From an uncultured Clostridia bacterium (GTDB lineage: Bacteria; Bacillota; Clostridia; Christensenellales; UBA1242): a stretch of DNA of 47,515 nt. The number at the start of each line of letters is the position of its first letter. Position 1 is the stretch's first letter. The position numbers and the translations under genes are program-made. Below the pieces are notes generated by a model that was given only the letters and a program-made list of their open reading frames with translations, was not told where the DNA came from and did no database searches. This document shows positions 5,329 through 37,788 of this stretch, piece by piece. The stretch spans positions 1-47,515 of the forward strand of contig CALVTR010000010.1 in NCBI GenBank assembly GCA_944362965.1, in the 5' to 3' direction.

Positions 5329-5458
5329 GCTGGCGGAAGAAAAATTTTTAGGCTTAAAAATTTTTAGCAAAAGCCGCATAAAAGATTGCTGAAAGATACC
5401 ATTTTCCTTTTCTCGGCTTTTGCTGCTCGCGTGCAAGCACGCGAGCCCTTCCGCCAGC
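5329..5458. repeat. Cloverleaf (four-way-junction) palindromic element A
   Basis: Outer perfect 11-bp inverted repeat GCTGGCGGAAG (5329-5339) / CTTCCGCCAGC (5448-5458). It encloses three hairpins packed end to end: 5340-5350/5355-5365 (11 bp, loop GGCT), 5366-5376/5414-5424 (11 bp, AGCAAAAGCCG, 37-nt loop) and 5425-5434/5437-5446 (10 bp, GCTCGCGTGC, 2-nt loop). Junction linkers are 0-1 nt. It occupies the lepA-hemW gap (5226-5530). A further imperfect hairpin (AAACCC...GGGTTT, about 5469-5501) follows before the hemW RBS. Same architecture as elements B-E but different sequence. Confidence 0.85.
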
Positions 5459-12257: not shown

Positions 12258-12922
12258 AAATAGATATCTTAACTCTTTTCCCTGAAAGTTTTTCATATCT
12301 CAATTCAAGCATCTTGAAAAGAGCTCAAGAGAGTGGGAAGATTGAGATAAATATCATAGATATACGTGCGTTTTCTTTAGATAAGCATAAAAAATGTGAT
12401 GATTATCCTTTTGGTGGCGGTGCTGGGATGCTTATGATGGTTCAACCTGTCTATGACGCGGTTAAAAGTGTGCAAGATGAAAATGCAGTTATTGTTATGC
12501 CGTCTCCGAGTGGCAAAACGCTTAATGTTGAAAGTGTCAAAGAGCTTTCAAAACTTGAGCATATAATTTTTATCTGTGGACACTATGAAGGGCTTGACGA
12601 GCGTATTAAAGATATCTTTCACCCAATAGAAATTTCAATAGGTGACTATGTGCTGACGGGTGGCGAGCTTCCAACTATGGTTATAGTTGATGCCGTGTCA
12701 CGTTTTGTTAGTGGGGTTATCAATGAAGAGAGTTTAAAAGAAGAAAGTTTCTCAAGCGGCTTGCTTGAATATCCGCAATATACAAGACCAGCGGACTTTA
12801 TAGGCTATAAAGTGCCCGATGTGCTACTCTCTGGCAATCATGCTGAGATAGAAAAGTGGAGAAAAGAAAAGTCACTTGAAAAAACAAAACAAATTCGTCC
12901 TGACTTGTTAAAGAAACTTTAA
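12254..12922 (+). CDS. trmD: tRNA (guanine(37)-N(1))-methyltransferase TrmD
   Basis: 222 aa. SPOUT-fold methyltransferase making m1G37 in tRNAs with G36-G37. Key segments: DIRAFSLDKHKKCDDYPFGG with the GGGAGM loop, ICGHYEGLDERI (SAM trefoil knot) and SIGDYVLTGGELP, followed by the C-terminal tRNA-binding domain. It overlaps rimM by four bases. In most Bacillota rplS comes next, but here a cloverleaf element and rbgA follow. Confidence 0.97.
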   Translation: MKIDILTLFPESFSYLNSSILKRAQESGKIEINIIDIRAFSLDKHKKCDDYPFGGGAGMLMMVQPVYDAVKSVQDENAVIVMPSPSGKTLNVESVKELSKLEHIIFICGHYEGLDERIKDIFHPIEISIGDYVLTGGELPTMVIVDAVSRFVSGVINEESLKEESFSSGLLEYPQYTRPADFIGYKVPDVLLSGNHAEIEKWRKEKSLEKTKQIRPDLLKKL

Positions 12923-13013
12923 TGCGGCTATCATAAAGTATTGAATTTATAAAAAATAGGTTTTCAAATTTTATCGTTTTAAATGCGGTTTTATTTATAA
13001 GTGAATTAAAGCG

Positions 13014-13033
13014 ACACGTTTTATTTAACGTGT
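13014..13033. repeat. Small hairpin abutting element B
   Basis: ACACGTT (13014-13020) and AACGTGT (13027-13033), 7 bp with a 6-nt loop, one base before element B. Confidence 0.6.
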
Positions 13034-13034
13034 G

Positions 13035-13120
13035 CCGAGAAGGCAAAAATTTTGCCCGCAAAATTTTTAGATTGCTTTGCAAAAGCAATCAAGTTTACCC
13101 ATAGGCAAACGCCTTCTCGG
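13035..13120. repeat. Cloverleaf (four-way-junction) palindromic element B
   Basis: Outer perfect 10-bp inverted repeat CCGAGAAGGC (13035-13044) / GCCTTCTCGG (13111-13120). Inside are hairpins 13045-13054/13059-13068 (10 bp, loop CCCG), 13070-13078/13082-13090 (9 bp, 3-nt loop) and a weaker third near 13093-13110 (GTTTaCC/GGcAAAC). It fills the trmD-rbgA gap (12923-13224), exactly where rplS would normally be. The rest of the gap is AT-rich with no gene. Confidence 0.8.
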
Positions 13121-13224
13121 AACCCAAAACCATCGCAAATTCAATAAAATTTATCAAAATCGCCATAAAAACACATAAAAAAACTAGAAAAAAGCTCGTT
13201 TTTTCTTTAAAAGGAGAGATAAAG

Positions 13225-14040
13225 ATGAAAATAAATTGGTTTCCGGGTCACATGACAAAAGCACTAAAAGACATACAAAAACAGCTAGCAAATGTCGACG
13301 TGGTGATTTATGTTTTAGATGCACGTGCACCTATATCATCTATCAATCCAAGTTTAAGCAAACTCTCACAGAACAAACCTGTGCTTTATGTGTTCAATAA
13401 AACCGACATTGCAGATTTCGAACGTGTCAAAACTCTTGCAAAACCATATAAAAGCGAAAATAGTGACTATGTGCTTCAAAACAGCACAATGTCAGGTAGC
13501 GGAAAAATAATCAAACAAAAAATTTTAAACCTTGCTCATGATAAAATTGAAAAGTTAAAAAACAAGGGTATAAGAGCGGTGATAAGAGCGATTGTTATAG
13601 GCGTGCCAAATTCAGGCAAAAGCACTCTTGTCAACAATCTTTGTGGCAAGGCTAAGACTGTCACAGGCAACCGACCGGGCGTTACAAAATCATCTCAATG
13701 GGTGTCACTAGGCGATAATATAGAACTTTGCGACACGCCCGGCACTCTCTATCCAAACCTTGCCGACCAAGAAGTTGCAAAGAAACTTCTTTTTATTGGA
13801 AGCATAAAAGATGAGATTATAGTTGATATTTGTGAGCTTGCTGAAGAATTTTTGAAGATGGCGTCAGAGCGATATCAAGAACTTTTAGTCAGCCGCTTCG
13901 GGCAGGATTTAACGTTAGATGCAATAGCAAGAAAACGTGGCTATAGATTGTCAAAAGATGAATATGACCTAGAGCGAACAGCACAAGCTGTCTTAGATGA
14001 TTTCAGAAAAGGCCGCATAGGGAAAATCACTTTAGACTAA
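13225..14040 (+). CDS. rbgA: Ribosome biogenesis GTPase RbgA (YlqF)
   Basis: 271 aa, RBS AAGGAGAG. Circularly permuted GTPase: the G4 motif NKTD precedes the P-loop GVPNSGKSTLVN and G3 DTPGT. The start KINWFPGHMTKAL is typical of YlqF. RbgA acts late in 50S assembly, for L16, L27 and L36 incorporation. It follows trmD as in Bacillus except that rplS is missing between them. No close RNase HII gene follows. Confidence 0.95.
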   Translation: MKINWFPGHMTKALKDIQKQLANVDVVIYVLDARAPISSINPSLSKLSQNKPVLYVFNKTDIADFERVKTLAKPYKSENSDYVLQNSTMSGSGKIIKQKILNLAHDKIEKLKNKGIRAVIRAIVIGVPNSGKSTLVNNLCGKAKTVTGNRPGVTKSSQWVSLGDNIELCDTPGTLYPNLADQEVAKKLLFIGSIKDEIIVDICELAEEFLKMASERYQELLVSRFGQDLTLDAIARKRGYRLSKDEYDLERTAQAVLDDFRKGRIGKITLD

Positions 14041-14113
14041 AAAACTATATTTTTTATTAAAAAATAATAGAAAAATAACATAAAAATTATAAAATTTTTA
14101 AAAGTAGGCTTAA

Positions 14114-14458
14114 ATGAAAGAATTAAACAAAGTTTTAGGTGTCAGCGGCGAAACGCTTGCTAGTAATTTCTTAAAGAAAAATGGCTATAAAATAATAGAG
14201 CGAAACTATAAAAATAAGCTTGGCGAAATTGATATCATAGCAAGCAATAAAAAGACGATTGTTTTTGTGGAAGTCAAAGCAAGAGACACTATTGTTTATG
14301 GACGCCCAAGTGAAGCGGTCAATTTTTATAAACAAAATAAGATACGCAAAGTTGCCCAGCAGTTTTTGCTTGAAAATAAGCTTAATGATTTTCCTTGCAG
14401 GTTTGACGTCATAGAAATTGTTGGAGATAAAATAATTCATATAGAAAACGCATTTTAA
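14114..14458 (+). CDS. yraN: YraN family protein (UPF0102, nuclease-like fold)
   Basis: 114 aa. Shows the restriction-endonuclease-like signature of the family: GEIDIIA with Asp, then VFVEVKAR (ExK). Its cellular role is unproven. It commonly lies downstream of ylqF/rnhB in Bacillota, which fits its place here. No strong RBS is seen before the ATG. Confidence 0.9.
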   Translation: MKELNKVLGVSGETLASNFLKKNGYKIIERNYKNKLGEIDIIASNKKTIVFVEVKARDTIVYGRPSEAVNFYKQNKIRKVAQQFLLENKLNDFPCRFDVIEIVGDKIIHIENAF

Positions 14459-14459
14459 G

Positions 14460-14482
14460 TGCATAGCAATATGCATTTTTTT
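14460..14482 (+). terminator. Terminator after yraN
   Basis: TGCATA (14460-14465), GCAA loop, TATGCA (14470-14475), then a T run. Confidence 0.8.
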
Positions 14483-14528
14483 GTTTTAAAAATAGAAACT
14501 TCGGCAATAATAATATAAAAGGTGGAAT

Positions 14529-15062
14529 ATGTCAAATTTATTAAGAAAACATAAAAACAAACTTTTTATATTTTTAATTGTATTTTTATTGAGTTTTTCA
14601 GCTATTTTTTTGCTGTCTTGCGAAAATTCCACACAGCTTCAATGTGCAACTATCTCTGAAATAACTTCAGCAGGAAGCGAAAATTATGCTGTGCGAATAA
14701 ATTTTTTAAATGATAGCAGGGTGGAAGAAAAATATGTTGACGTTCAGATAAAGTGTGATAAAACCTGTCAGCTTATCTTCTGGGAAGAAAATCAAGATAA
14801 AATAACACTTAACATTGATGATTATGATGAATGGTTTTCGCTGACGTCACTTATCTGCGAAGCGAAAGGGCAAACAGGGCAAGAGAGCTTTGAAAAATTT
14901 AAGGATGCCACAGGAAAAACATATCTTTTTAACTATGACGGAAACCTAGAGATAACCTTACGTGTTGTTGTGGGCGACGTTGAAGATAATAGTGCTGGCA
15001 CAGGGCAAATACTCGTTGGAAGCGAGCCAATTTCCGATCAGAAAACATTAAAAATCAAATAA
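14529..15062 (+). CDS. Putative lipoprotein of unknown function
   Basis: 177 aa, RBS AGGTGG. A Lys-rich N-terminus and hydrophobic stretch (about 11-30) end in the lipobox L-L-S-C, with Cys about residue 31, so the mature protein should be anchored on the outer face of the membrane. The rest is soluble, acidic and predicted mostly beta; it matches no family I recognise. Stands alone between two terminators. Confidence 0.7.
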   Translation: MSNLLRKHKNKLFIFLIVFLLSFSAIFLLSCENSTQLQCATISEITSAGSENYAVRINFLNDSRVEEKYVDVQIKCDKTCQLIFWEENQDKITLNIDDYDEWFSLTSLICEAKGQTGQESFEKFKDATGKTYLFNYDGNLEITLRVVVGDVEDNSAGTGQILVGSEPISDQKTLKIK

Positions 15063-15092
15063 AGGCAAAAAATTGCTTTTATTTTTTTTTAT
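15058..15092 (+). terminator. Terminator after the lipoprotein gene
   Basis: A short stem (AAAGGCAA/TTGCTTTT with one G-T pair) with an A-rich loop is followed by a long T run. Confidence 0.7.
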
Positions 15093-15143
15093 TTTATAGT
15101 ATATTATTATCATAAGATGTTTTTGTTTTAAAGGAGCAATTCA

Positions 15144-30819: not shown

Positions 30820-31491
30820 ATGAACAATACTATAGCATTAAAGTCAAATAATAGGGGACAATTAGTTGGCAAATTGGTATCAATGGATGGTAAATTTGAT
30901 GTGGAAGGTGAAAAATTCTATGAAGGAAAACTTGAAGTTGAAAGATTGTCAGAAACTGTGGATATCTTGCCTTTCACAATTTCAGAAAAACTAATTAAAG
31001 CATATGATTTAGATTTAAAAGTAGGGCAAGAGCTTGCTCTCGGCGGTGAGCTACGCTCTTACAATCGCGTTATTGATGGCAAAAGCAGACTTATACTTTC
31101 ATTTTTTGTAAAGGAAGTGCTTTCACCTGAGAACCTGCCTGAGAACAATACAAACACTTTAAAACTTGTTGGATATATTTGCAAAGAGCCTGTCTTCCGA
31201 ATAACACCTTTTAATAGACAAATTTGTGATGTGCTTATTGCTGTCAATAGACCTAATTTCAACAAATCAGATTATTTGCCTTGTATCTTCTGGGGTAGAA
31301 ATGCCTGCCTTATGCAAAATCAGAAGGTGGGAACAAAGGTAAATCTTGTTGGAAGAATCCAATCAAGAACCTACAAAAAAGAGATTGCAGATGGCGAGTT
31401 TGAAGAGCGAACTGCCTATGAAGTTTCAGGGCAGAAATTATCAATAGAAGAGCAAGAGAACGAAGACTCTTCAAGCGAACTTGGTGCATAG
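30820..31491 (+). CDS. Single-stranded DNA-binding-like protein with two OB folds
   Basis: 223 aa, RBS AAGGAGAA. Two OB-like halves are seen: residues 1-105 (NRGQLVGKLVSMDGKFDVEGEKFYEG...) and 110-210 (NTLKLVGYICKEPVFR..., ICDVLIAVNRPNF, CIFWGRNACLM, GTKVNLVGRIQSRTY). The second half is the more typical SSB fold. The tail is acidic but lacks the DDIPF-type end. It probably binds single-stranded DNA; whether it is a main SSB or an accessory one cannot be told. Confidence 0.75.
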   Translation: MNNTIALKSNNRGQLVGKLVSMDGKFDVEGEKFYEGKLEVERLSETVDILPFTISEKLIKAYDLDLKVGQELALGGELRSYNRVIDGKSRLILSFFVKEVLSPENLPENNTNTLKLVGYICKEPVFRITPFNRQICDVLIAVNRPNFNKSDYLPCIFWGRNACLMQNQKVGTKVNLVGRIQSRTYKKEIADGEFEERTAYEVSGQKLSIEEQENEDSSSELGA

Positions 31492-33706: not shown

Positions 33707-33765
33707 GAAGATAGAAATAATAGTAATAGCAAAAGCAAGAAATAGTCCTAAGGATTATTTGAAAT

Positions 33766-33872
33766 GGGCGAAAAACAAAAAACACGAAAAAATCGCGTTT
33801 TTTAATGCAAATTTTTTTAAAAAATTTGCATTTTTTGTTTTTTAGGCTTAAAAAACAAAAAGTTTTTCGCCC
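33766..33872. repeat. Cloverleaf (four-way-junction) palindromic element D
   Basis: Outer perfect 11-bp inverted repeat GGGCGAAAAAC (33766-33776) / GTTTTTCGCCC (33862-33872), extendable to about 15 bp with G-T pairs. Inside are hairpins 33777-33786/33794-33803 (10 bp, one mismatch), 33804-33817/33819-33832 (14 bp, AATGCAAATTTTTT) and 33133-type arm 33833-33844/33849-33860 (12 bp, loop GGCT as in element A). It lies between the convergent ABC exporter and DUF4186 genes. Confidence 0.87.
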
Positions 33873-33945
33873 GTTTTTACACGCCCACACTTTACTAAAA
33901 ATTTACGTTTATCTCCCGCACAAAGTAAATCTATAAAATGCGGTT

Positions 33946-36535: not shown

Positions 36536-36659
36536 GGCGAGACTTGCAAAAAGCCGGAGCATAAACATGCTCCGGCTTTTTCGTTTGTTAAATCGCAGAT
36601 TTAACAAACAGATATGCCCGCCCGCATCACTGCAGGCGGGCATATCAGCAAGTCTCGCC
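36536..36659. repeat. Cloverleaf (four-way-junction) palindromic element E
   Basis: The cleanest copy. Outer perfect 12-bp inverted repeat GGCGAGACTTGC (36536-36547) / GCAAGTCTCGCC (36648-36659). Inside are three perfect hairpins: 36548-36562/36567-36581 (15 bp, loop AAAC), 36583-36594/36598-36609 (12 bp, loop GCA) and 36611-36622/36635-36646 (12 bp). The four arms meet with 0-1 unpaired bases. Its right end coincides with the stop codon of the XRE gene. Arm 1 would also act as a terminator. Confidence 0.92.
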
Positions 36660-36951: not shown

Positions 36952-37788
36952 ATGAGTTTAAAAGTAAAATTGATTTCTAGCATTTCGTCATTCATATTGA
37001 CTTTATGTCTTTTGATTGTGGGTGTATGGACAGCAGGCACTCAAACAATAAACTTGAAGGGCAGCGTTAATTTTAATATAGAAGATTCAACATTTTATAT
37101 CAAAGATATACGTATAAATTGTGATGATTTGATAGGTGAAGGGTCCACAATAGAAAATTTTATGCCGGGTTTTGTTAACAATAGTTTTGAACTTAACTTA
37201 GGCACAATCACAAGCACCACAGGCTCCGTCGCAGTGCAAATTGATATCGTCAACACAACGGGAACTGTTTACAGTGCAAGCAGTCAGTCTAGCATATCGA
37301 ATGCAACTTTATCTGTCAGCGGAACAATAGAAGGAGACAATGTTCCACTCGAAAATGTTGCCACTTATAACGATATCTCCGGCACAATACAAATAATCAT
37401 CCAAACAACCGATTTATCGTCAATAAATTTAGATAATATCACTATAGAGCTAAATGAAAAGAGTGGCTATACTGCAACAATAAATATTGTAGATGATAGT
37501 ATCCATCAATATTCTTCTGAACTTGGTGTTGCAATCAACAACTCATCCGATGTGACAGGTTTTAATGAATTTGAAAGTTTTGACCAGTGGCAAATTATTC
37601 TTTATAATGTAGAAACTATTGCTATAACAAACTCTAGAAATGTAACCATAAGAGCCACAGATTATTATACTATCAATTTATCTTCAAACGCAGGTTTTAG
37701 CGGAACACTTGACAGCAACGCCTCGGACTTTTTGGGTTGGTATACTCTAACGCAAGATACAACTTTTACTATAACAATTTCTTATTAA
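36952..37788 (+). CDS. Secreted protein of unknown function under XRE control
   Basis: 278 aa, RBS AAAGGAGA. Signal peptide-like N-terminus: basic MSLKVK then a hydrophobic segment (about 8-27) and VGVWTAGTQ. The mature part is Ser/Thr/Asn/Ile-rich with predicted beta strands and almost no Lys or Cys (NIEDSTFYIKDIRINCDDLIG is the only Cys region). The tail (about 225-278) is an InlB-like beta unit ending FLGWYTLTQDTTFTITISY. No family recognised; XRE-controlled matrix proteins such as TasA are only a loose parallel. Terminator follows at 37816. Confidence 0.7.
   Translation: MSLKVKLISSISSFILTLCLLIVGVWTAGTQTINLKGSVNFNIEDSTFYIKDIRINCDDLIGEGSTIENFMPGFVNNSFELNLGTITSTTGSVAVQIDIVNTTGTVYSASSQSSISNATLSVSGTIEGDNVPLENVATYNDISGTIQIIIQTTDLSSINLDNITIELNEKSGYTATINIVDDSIHQYSSELGVAINNSSDVTGFNEFESFDQWQIILYNVETIAITNSRNVTIRATDYYTINLSSNAGFSGTLDSNASDFLGWYTLTQDTTFTITISY

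What the first reader, a model, noticed from the sequence alone, without database searches (positions are those of the whole stretch)
36536..36659. Family of intergenic four-way-junction elements; clearest copy (E)
Five elements (5329, 13035, 31558, 33766, 36536) each have a 10-12 bp perfect outer stem enclosing exactly three hairpins with almost no unpaired junction bases. Sequences differ, so the fold rather than the sequence is kept; only a purine-rich GGCGA-like outer arm followed by an A run recurs. In element E all four stems are perfect (12, 15, 12, 12 bp). I recall a published Holliday-junction-like candidate motif (HOLDH), but cannot test membership. As DNA these could extrude as cruciform junctions; as RNA they could be structured 3' ends.
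Basis: partly seen in the sequence, partly recalled or inferred. Interest (0 to 1): 0.85.

Follow-up and report, generated by a model that had tools for sequence, protein, structure and literature searches.

The report
Four-way-junction DNA repeats between genes
A bacterium related to uncultured gut Clostridia carries dozens of short sequences between its genes, each able to fold either strand of its DNA into the same near-perfect cross shape although the letters differ from copy to copy, which suggests that the DNA shape itself is what is being kept and perhaps copied around.

Summary
A covariance model trained mainly on copies outside the window ranks exactly the five elements as its ten best matches (both strands; next best E 0.36). 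I count at least 69 places in the 1.37-Mb genome. In 723 kb sampled, strict criteria give 31 four-way junctions and no three-way or five-way; shuffled sequence gives no four-way. In the alignment 96% of cells pair; covariation is 0.97 against 0.23 shuffled.

G-T pairs are only 1.4% and show no strand bias; terminator hairpins of the same genome have 7.4% on the sense strand and 1.2% on the other. So the constraint looks DNA-level. Elements are intergenic, mostly absent from the syntenic gaps found, present in 7 of 36 congeners, and amplified here. The three-hairpin core occurs in both orientations inside matching flanks.

Best reading: a MITE-like family of DNA palindromes whose kept trait is a nearly fully paired Holliday-like junction. 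No mobilising enzyme or target duplication was found. HOLDH is not supported. One element is identical in two species, so host function remains a live rival.

The parts
36536..36547 (.). element E, left outer arm (12 bp stem with 36648-36659)
36548..36581 (.). element E, hairpin 1 (15 bp, 4-base loop)
36583..36609 (.). element E, hairpin 2 (12 bp, 3-base loop)
36611..36646 (.). element E, hairpin 3 (12 bp, one mismatch, 3 bp more)
36648..36659 (.). element E, right outer arm; its last base is also the last base of the stop codon of the HTH gene on the - strand
5329..5458 (.). element A (outer 11 bp; middle hairpin with a 37-base loop)
   Evidence: model R2 48.3 bits
13035..13120 (.). element B (outer 10 bp; third hairpin weak)
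   Evidence: - strand only; model R2 41.3 bits
31558..31655 (.). element C (outer 10 bp; hairpins 10, 11, 10 bp); the same gap in two relatives holds another four-way element
   Evidence: model R2 62.4 bits
33766..33872 (.). element D (outer 11 bp; 33761-33877 with pairs extended on the + strand)
   Evidence: model R2 43.8 bits
36066..36416 (+). neighbour: ribosomal protein L19 gene (anchor for the orthologous gap)
   Evidence: TIGR01024
36659..36868 (-). neighbour: small helix-turn-helix gene, convergent with rplS, also present beyond the element-free gap of G008
   Evidence: PF01381

Best explanation
These are copies of one family of miniature, non-coding, MITE-like mobile DNA elements, about 86-137 bp long, seen so far in one genus of uncultured Clostridia and amplified to at least 69 places in this genome. 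Inferred: the DNA shape is what is recognised. When a strand is exposed (replication, extrusion), it folds into the junction; a structure-reading enzyme (a junction resolvase, a tyrosine recombinase or a hairpin-processing nuclease; not identified) cuts or joins at the outer arms, which copies or moves the element and lets the core flip. Copies that lose the junction are not propagated, which would keep the shape while the letters drift.
For: Four-way architecture far above chance: 31 four-way against 0 three-way and 0 five-way; shuffled 0 four-way. Alignment of 74 model matches (both strands of most elements): 96.2% of cells paired against 55.2% shuffled, covariation 0.973 against 0.226 shuffled and at most 0.191 with partners slid. 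One strand per element, 38 elements: 1442 Watson-Crick, 15 G-T, 13 A-C, 45 other, 43 gap cells. G-T 20 of 1397 pairs in 32 non-redundant elements, 16 when folded on the other strand, against 57 of 766 in sense folds of 73 terminator-like hairpins, whose antisense folds give 8 of 658; Fisher p 3e-12 and 5e-9. In 21 tandem-gap elements: 8 G-T on the sense fold, 14 on the antisense fold. 0 of 32 overlap a called gene by more than 30 bases, with 83% of the sample called as coding by my own ORF scorer. Absent from syntenic gaps: A in 6 of 6, B in 13 of 13, D in 2 of 2, E in 1 of 1 loci found. Distribution by model: this genome 61 matches; 6 of 36 congeners with 1-3 matches each (those of G044 weak, E 0.004 and 0.009); 0 of 24 other genomes of the order. 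Flip: L190 and L191 cores 88% alike as reverse complements, 51% directly, with left and right flanks 92% and 98% alike in the same direction; L015 against L200 (read as reverse complement) 87% and 52%, flanks 90% and 90%.
Against: No mobilising enzyme identified: Y1 transposase and the IS110 C-terminal domain gave no match here; a reverse transcriptase fragment and seven tyrosine-recombinase matches show no tie to the elements; DDE transposase families were not searched. No target-site duplication: direct repeats at the edges of 32 elements are no more frequent than with edges re-dealt among elements. The only syntenic gap without E (G008) aligns well to the right of the element but not to the left, and the flank-joined search gave no clean empty site. 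The gap-C element is identical over 94 of 94 bases in two species whose surrounding DNA is 82% identical, which looks like host-level conservation. Some near-identical copies are carried along with larger similar flanks, so copy number overstates transposition. Two measures do not exceed their shuffles: pairs with a change on both sides (41 of 41, reached by 120 of 500 shuffles) and further pair types (52 of 500); and that alignment was fitted to the model's structure.
Confidence: 0.55

Rival explanations
1. Host elements with a chromosomal job: binding sites for a junction-binding or architectural protein, kept by selection on the host, with gain and loss between species.
For: The gap-C element is 94 of 94 identical in G008 and in the genome of L056 although the surrounding 4.9 kb is 82% identical (0.82^94 is 8e-9). 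No second full copy was found in either: the best other place is a 77% match over 69 bases in G008, besides matches of 23-30 bases. Gap C keeps a four-way element, with other hairpins, in three genomes.
Against: 29 of 36 congeners show none by model (68 candidates scored per genome), 16 of these 29 also none in one 18-20-kb piece folded. 4 of the 5 window elements are absent from the syntenic gaps found. Neighbours are ordinary and varied genes.
Confidence: 0.25
2. Structured RNA 3' ends or two-way transcription terminators.
For: C is preceded by an A run and followed by a T run, D and some others are followed by T runs; D and E lie between convergent genes. A published survey found that 230 of 250 palindromic RNA candidates could form terminators (PMC8040213, section 8 read).
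Against: Of 29 non-redundant elements with both neighbours called, 21 lie in tandem, 5 in convergent and 3 in divergent gaps. Terminators do not need three hairpins in a closed junction (established knowledge).
Confidence: 0.08
3. No selection on shape: repair or replication errors copy one hairpin arm onto the other (hairpin-templated correction), so any inverted repeat stays perfect, and the family spread by ordinary recombination.
For: Nearly perfect Watson-Crick arms, loops mostly 3-4 bases, core inversions between arms, long-arm copies in repeat-rich islands.
Against: It does not explain why there are three hairpins in a closed junction: strict criteria give 31 four-way and no three-way or five-way. 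It may act together with the best explanation.
Confidence: 0.1
4. Member of, or relative of, the HOLDH RNA motif.
Against: No Rfam family matches the window at gathering level and HOLDH is not among the six matches up to E 10. HOLDH is described as an RNA with a kink turn (PMC8191799, passages); the stems of E have no bulge of that kind. That HOLDH is among the 4227 models was not verified by a call.
Confidence: 0.01

Closest known systems
REPINs and REP sequences (PMC3116915 and PMC3733652, passages seen)
   Same: Short intergenic palindromic mobile DNA, amplified in some lineages; hairpins with compensatory changes in the REPIN spacer; a folded single strand proposed as intermediate
   Different: REPINs form one long hairpin from two conserved inverted REPs, with a GTAG tag and RAYT (Y1) transposases. 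Here the fold is a closed four-way junction, the arms themselves vary, and no Y1 transposase matches in this genome
Prokaryotic MITEs, with ERIC, BOX, RUP, RPE (review PMC10969869, passages seen)
   Same: About 100-200 bp, non-coding, inverted ends, intergenic
   Different: MITEs have terminal inverted repeats and direct repeats tied to a source IS; here terminal sequence varies with pairing kept, no excess of direct repeats, no source IS identified
Integron attC sites (PMC8618304, passages seen)
   Same: Recognition of a folded DNA strand with very little sequence constraint, the best precedent for shape-read DNA
   Different: attC sites are hairpins that belong to gene cassettes and an integron integrase; here three hairpins in a closed junction, no cassette arrays shown
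Palindromic repeats M1/M2 of pithoviruses (PMC10664404, passages seen)
   Same: Intergenic palindromic repeats colonising a lineage; junction-cutting and hairpin-cutting enzymes proposed as helpers
   Different: Different host; palindromes with long terminal inverted repeats and putative TA duplications
Parvovirus terminal repeats with flip and flop forms (recalled, no call)
   Same: Stem plus inner hairpins found in both orientations
   Different: Ends of a viral genome, three-way, nicked by Rep; no such protein tested here
Mitochondrial double-hairpin elements (search listing only)
   Same: Dispersed mobile hairpin elements
   Different: Two hairpins, organelles (recalled); not compared in sequence

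Membership tests
HOLDH RNA motif | match to the family's covariance model | tested here: inconclusive
   no HOLDH match in the window up to E 10; presence of HOLDH in the library not verified
HOLDH RNA motif | kink turn (bulge next to G-A pairs) | tested here: not met
   stems of E are Watson-Crick helices with one 1x1 mismatch; kink turn of HOLDH from PMC8191799 passages
REP/REPIN | RAYT (Y1) transposase in the genome | tested here: not met
   PF01797 no match in this genome; it rings in 5 of 14 control genomes
REP/REPIN | GTAG (or CGTC) tag and conserved REP stem sequence | tested here: not met
   outer arms vary and no common tag is seen by eye in the listed elements
MITE | short, non-coding, inverted ends, dispersed copies with presence/absence differences | tested here: met
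MITE | target-site duplication | tested here: not met
   edge direct repeats of 32 elements as with re-dealt edges; duplications are said to fade with time
MITE | cognate transposase or IS with the same ends | tested here: inconclusive
   no Y1, no IS110; DDE families not searched
Integron attC | folded hairpin site of a cassette with an integron integrase | tested here: inconclusive
   three hairpins, 0-2 unpaired junction bases in 27 of 32; seven tyrosine-recombinase matches not examined further
Intrinsic terminator | strand-specific RNA hairpin with U run after a gene | tested here: not met
   G-T 8 sense, 14 antisense in 21 tandem elements against 57 of 766 and 8 of 658 in terminator-like hairpins

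The most novel reading that the evidence does not exclude
A mobile DNA family whose unit of selection is a shape: a folded single strand forming a complete Holliday junction that a structure-specific enzyme reads with little regard to sequence, so that letters drift under strict Watson-Crick pairing and the core flips like a viral terminal repeat.
Probability: 0.3. Interest if true: 0.92.

Novelty: new variant of a known kind. Interest (0 to 1): 0.76.

Why it matters
Covariation is normally read as proof of RNA structure. That gives a simple test for other 'structured RNA' candidates, and a natural set of dozens of different four-way junctions on which structure-reading enzymes can be tested. 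If an enzyme copies DNA by junction shape, it would be a new principle for small mobile elements and a possible tool with little sequence requirement.

Tried and rejected
Rfam at gathering level and to E 10: nothing credible; the two chance hits over or beside E are NrrF and Thr_leader, far below their cut-offs. Y1, IS110 C-terminal, reverse transcriptase, tyrosine recombinase and SbcD families: none marks this genome apart from its congeners; SbcD has a weak match here as in 16 of 22 congeners, so loss of hairpin cleavage is not supported as the explanation (one search took this genome alone, searches took 12 congeners). Phage collection with one element and plasmid collection with another: no match. 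Flank-joined search for empty sites: no clean case; edge duplications: none beyond chance. First alignments of divergent copies were misregistered and not used; the model was started from one close subfamily (A4, one of five rows partly misaligned) and widened by search. Rows of A5 and A6 include both strands of most elements; the one-strand count removes this. Search of 297 genomes of the order matched only this one, but scored only 14 candidates per genome and is a weak negative. One search scored 150 of 2891 first-look candidates and one search scored 68 per genome, so whole-genome counts are lower bounds. In one search five gap lengths of 1 (A: L153; B: L140, L143, L146, L148) come from extrapolated edges, and its loci are not shown to be all distinct species. 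Named and unnamed sets overlap (L059 and L141 look like the same contig by length). The 69 places merge model hits and fold hits; four loci held in reverse were left out of the fold part. Hairpin order labels rest on A+T content and are arbitrary for some elements. Literature: searches (HOLDH; such repeats; double-hairpin elements; attC) gave no description of such a family; I saw listings, and passages of the papers named above; the paper that defined HOLDH is not held.

Full report
What is there. Element E at 36536-36659 folds on either strand into an outer 12-bp stem and three hairpins of 15, 12 and 12 bp. A covariance model built from other copies (only C of the window was among its training rows) ranks the five as its ten best matches in the window on the two strands, E-values 2e-11 to 6e-4, next best 0.36.

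How many. With the window and 34 stretches of this genome (723,232 bases, 53%, one strand folded), criteria of 7 or more pairs per stem, at most 2 unpaired junction bases and loops up to 6 give 31 four-way junctions, no three-way, no five-way; the loosest criteria give 37 four-way and 4 three-way; one shuffle of the same sources gives 0 four-way at all four settings and 5, 2, 1 and 0 three-way. The model over the whole genome finds 79 matches, which I count as 46 places, with 150 of 2891 candidates scored. Merged with the fold scan this is at least 69 places, 12 neighbouring pairs of which lie within 1 kb.

Anatomy. In 32 non-redundant elements the median length is 97 bp (86-137). Unpaired junction bases: none in 3, one in 18, two in 6, three in 4, five in 1, and they lie mostly beside the middle hairpin (36 of 47 bases). 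Of 96 hairpins 85 have loops of 3 or 4 bases when folded alone. The outer arm often reads like GCGAGA or GCGAAT, one hairpin is usually A+T-rich and one richer in G+C, so the copies seem to share ancestry as well as shape.

DNA, not RNA. In the aligned set 96.2% of cells pair against 55.2% after shuffling, and the covariation score is 0.973 against 0.226 after shuffling and at most 0.191 with partners slid. All 41 pairs have changes on both sides, but that count is reached by 120 of 500 shuffles and the number of pair types by 52 of 500, so these two say little. An RNA under selection tolerates G-U on the transcribed strand. These elements have 20 G-T in 1397 pairs when folded on the fetched strand and 16 on the other; in the 21 elements that lie in tandem gaps, 8 on the sense and 14 on the antisense fold. 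The control works: 73 terminator-like hairpins of the same genome have 57 of 766 on the sense strand and 8 of 658 on the other (tests). Both sets were found by folding that allows G-U, which can inflate it on the strand searched.

Where it sits and how it spreads. None of the 32 overlaps a called gene by more than 30 bases, with 83% of the sample called as coding by my own scorer; gaps are tandem 21, convergent 5, divergent 3, and 3 at stretch ends. In the syntenic gaps that could be found, A is absent in 6 of 6, B in 13 of 13, D in 2 of 2 and E in 1 of 1; gap C holds a four-way element in 2 of 2 but with other hairpins. By model, 6 of 36 congeners have 1-3 matches and 0 of 24 other genomes of the order have any; the fold scan adds a seventh congener, G005. 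Named relatives are mostly labelled uncultured Clostridia. Of 31 named loci folded (L054-L073 and 11 more), four hold a tight four-way junction: three of the seven closest (L054, L056, L059) and one looser hit in L081. Close copies sit in partly different surroundings, and in two flank families the core occurs in both orientations: L190 and L188 against L191, and L015, L016, L188, L190 against L018 and L200. In L190/L191, L015/L018 and L015/L200 both flanks agree; in the other opposed pairs one flank or both agree less well. Edges show no direct repeats beyond chance.

Against a purely selfish reading. The gap-C element of G008 is identical over 94 bases in the genome of L056, where the surrounding DNA is 82% identical, and neither genome shows a second full copy. 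Either this copy has been recruited, or such elements have a job.

How it most likely works. Shown: shape kept at DNA level, four-way form, intergenic position, presence/absence differences, flipping, local amplification. Inferred: a structure-reading enzyme acts on the folded strand. Not found: the enzyme, a target duplication, direct movement. Y1 and IS110 domains gave no match; the genome has one reverse transcriptase fragment and seven tyrosine-recombinase matches, where the 12 congeners in that search have 1 to 9. Genes next to elements are ordinary (tilS, a radical SAM protein, release factor 1, LRR proteins, a RecD2-type helicase, a prophage terminase).

Known or new. The nearest kinds are REPINs, MITEs and attC sites; each fails, or is unproven on, a defining feature (see the membership table). 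The literature searches listed under Tried and rejected gave no description of a family kept as a four-way junction; the library holds open-licence papers only. I file it as a new variant of the miniature mobile palindromes, with a minority chance that reading of a complete junction shape makes it a new kind.

Noticed in passing
L013:9000-9960, L006:1240-1840, L015:18850-20000, L188, L191, L194: Long intergenic islands are mosaics of many other short palindromic modules (for example AAACCAAATGTTTGACGG, GCGGATTATCCGC, GGCTTAGCCAC) in varying order and orientation, often with two four-way elements; the 12 close pairs lie 172-790 bp apart.
   Followed up: partly
L194, L190, L188, L191, L005:7840-7880, L013:9480-9530, L016:190-240: A shared sequence TATACCCCCC..CAACCC..GTCAA.CAAATTT follows many elements or islands and may mark the end of a larger repeat.
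   Followed up: no
L005:7640-7805 and five more places: One subfamily of copies; at least three (L008 and those in L156, L157) lie upstream of genes with similar 5' ends. The start of the gene at window 36952-37788 is similar in DNA; it has no Pfam match.
   Followed up: partly
L168:12146-12240 and 15015-15104: Two elements lie on either side of a RecD2-type helicase gene (12736-14973) and one small gene.
   Followed up: no
L018:7670-7803 beside L018:8033-9457: An element lies next to a phage terminase large subunit gene, so a prophage region seems to carry one too.
   Followed up: no
window 30820-31491: The gene upstream of element C carries an SSB (single-strand binding) domain at residues 112-206 of 223.
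   Followed up: no
G008:C26:9694-9758: A second, 77% similar partial relative of the gap-C element about 10 kb away in G008.
   Followed up: no
L054:5754-5869: A relative has a four-way element at the right edge of the gap that holds D here, but behind a different sequence and with other hairpins.
   Followed up: partly
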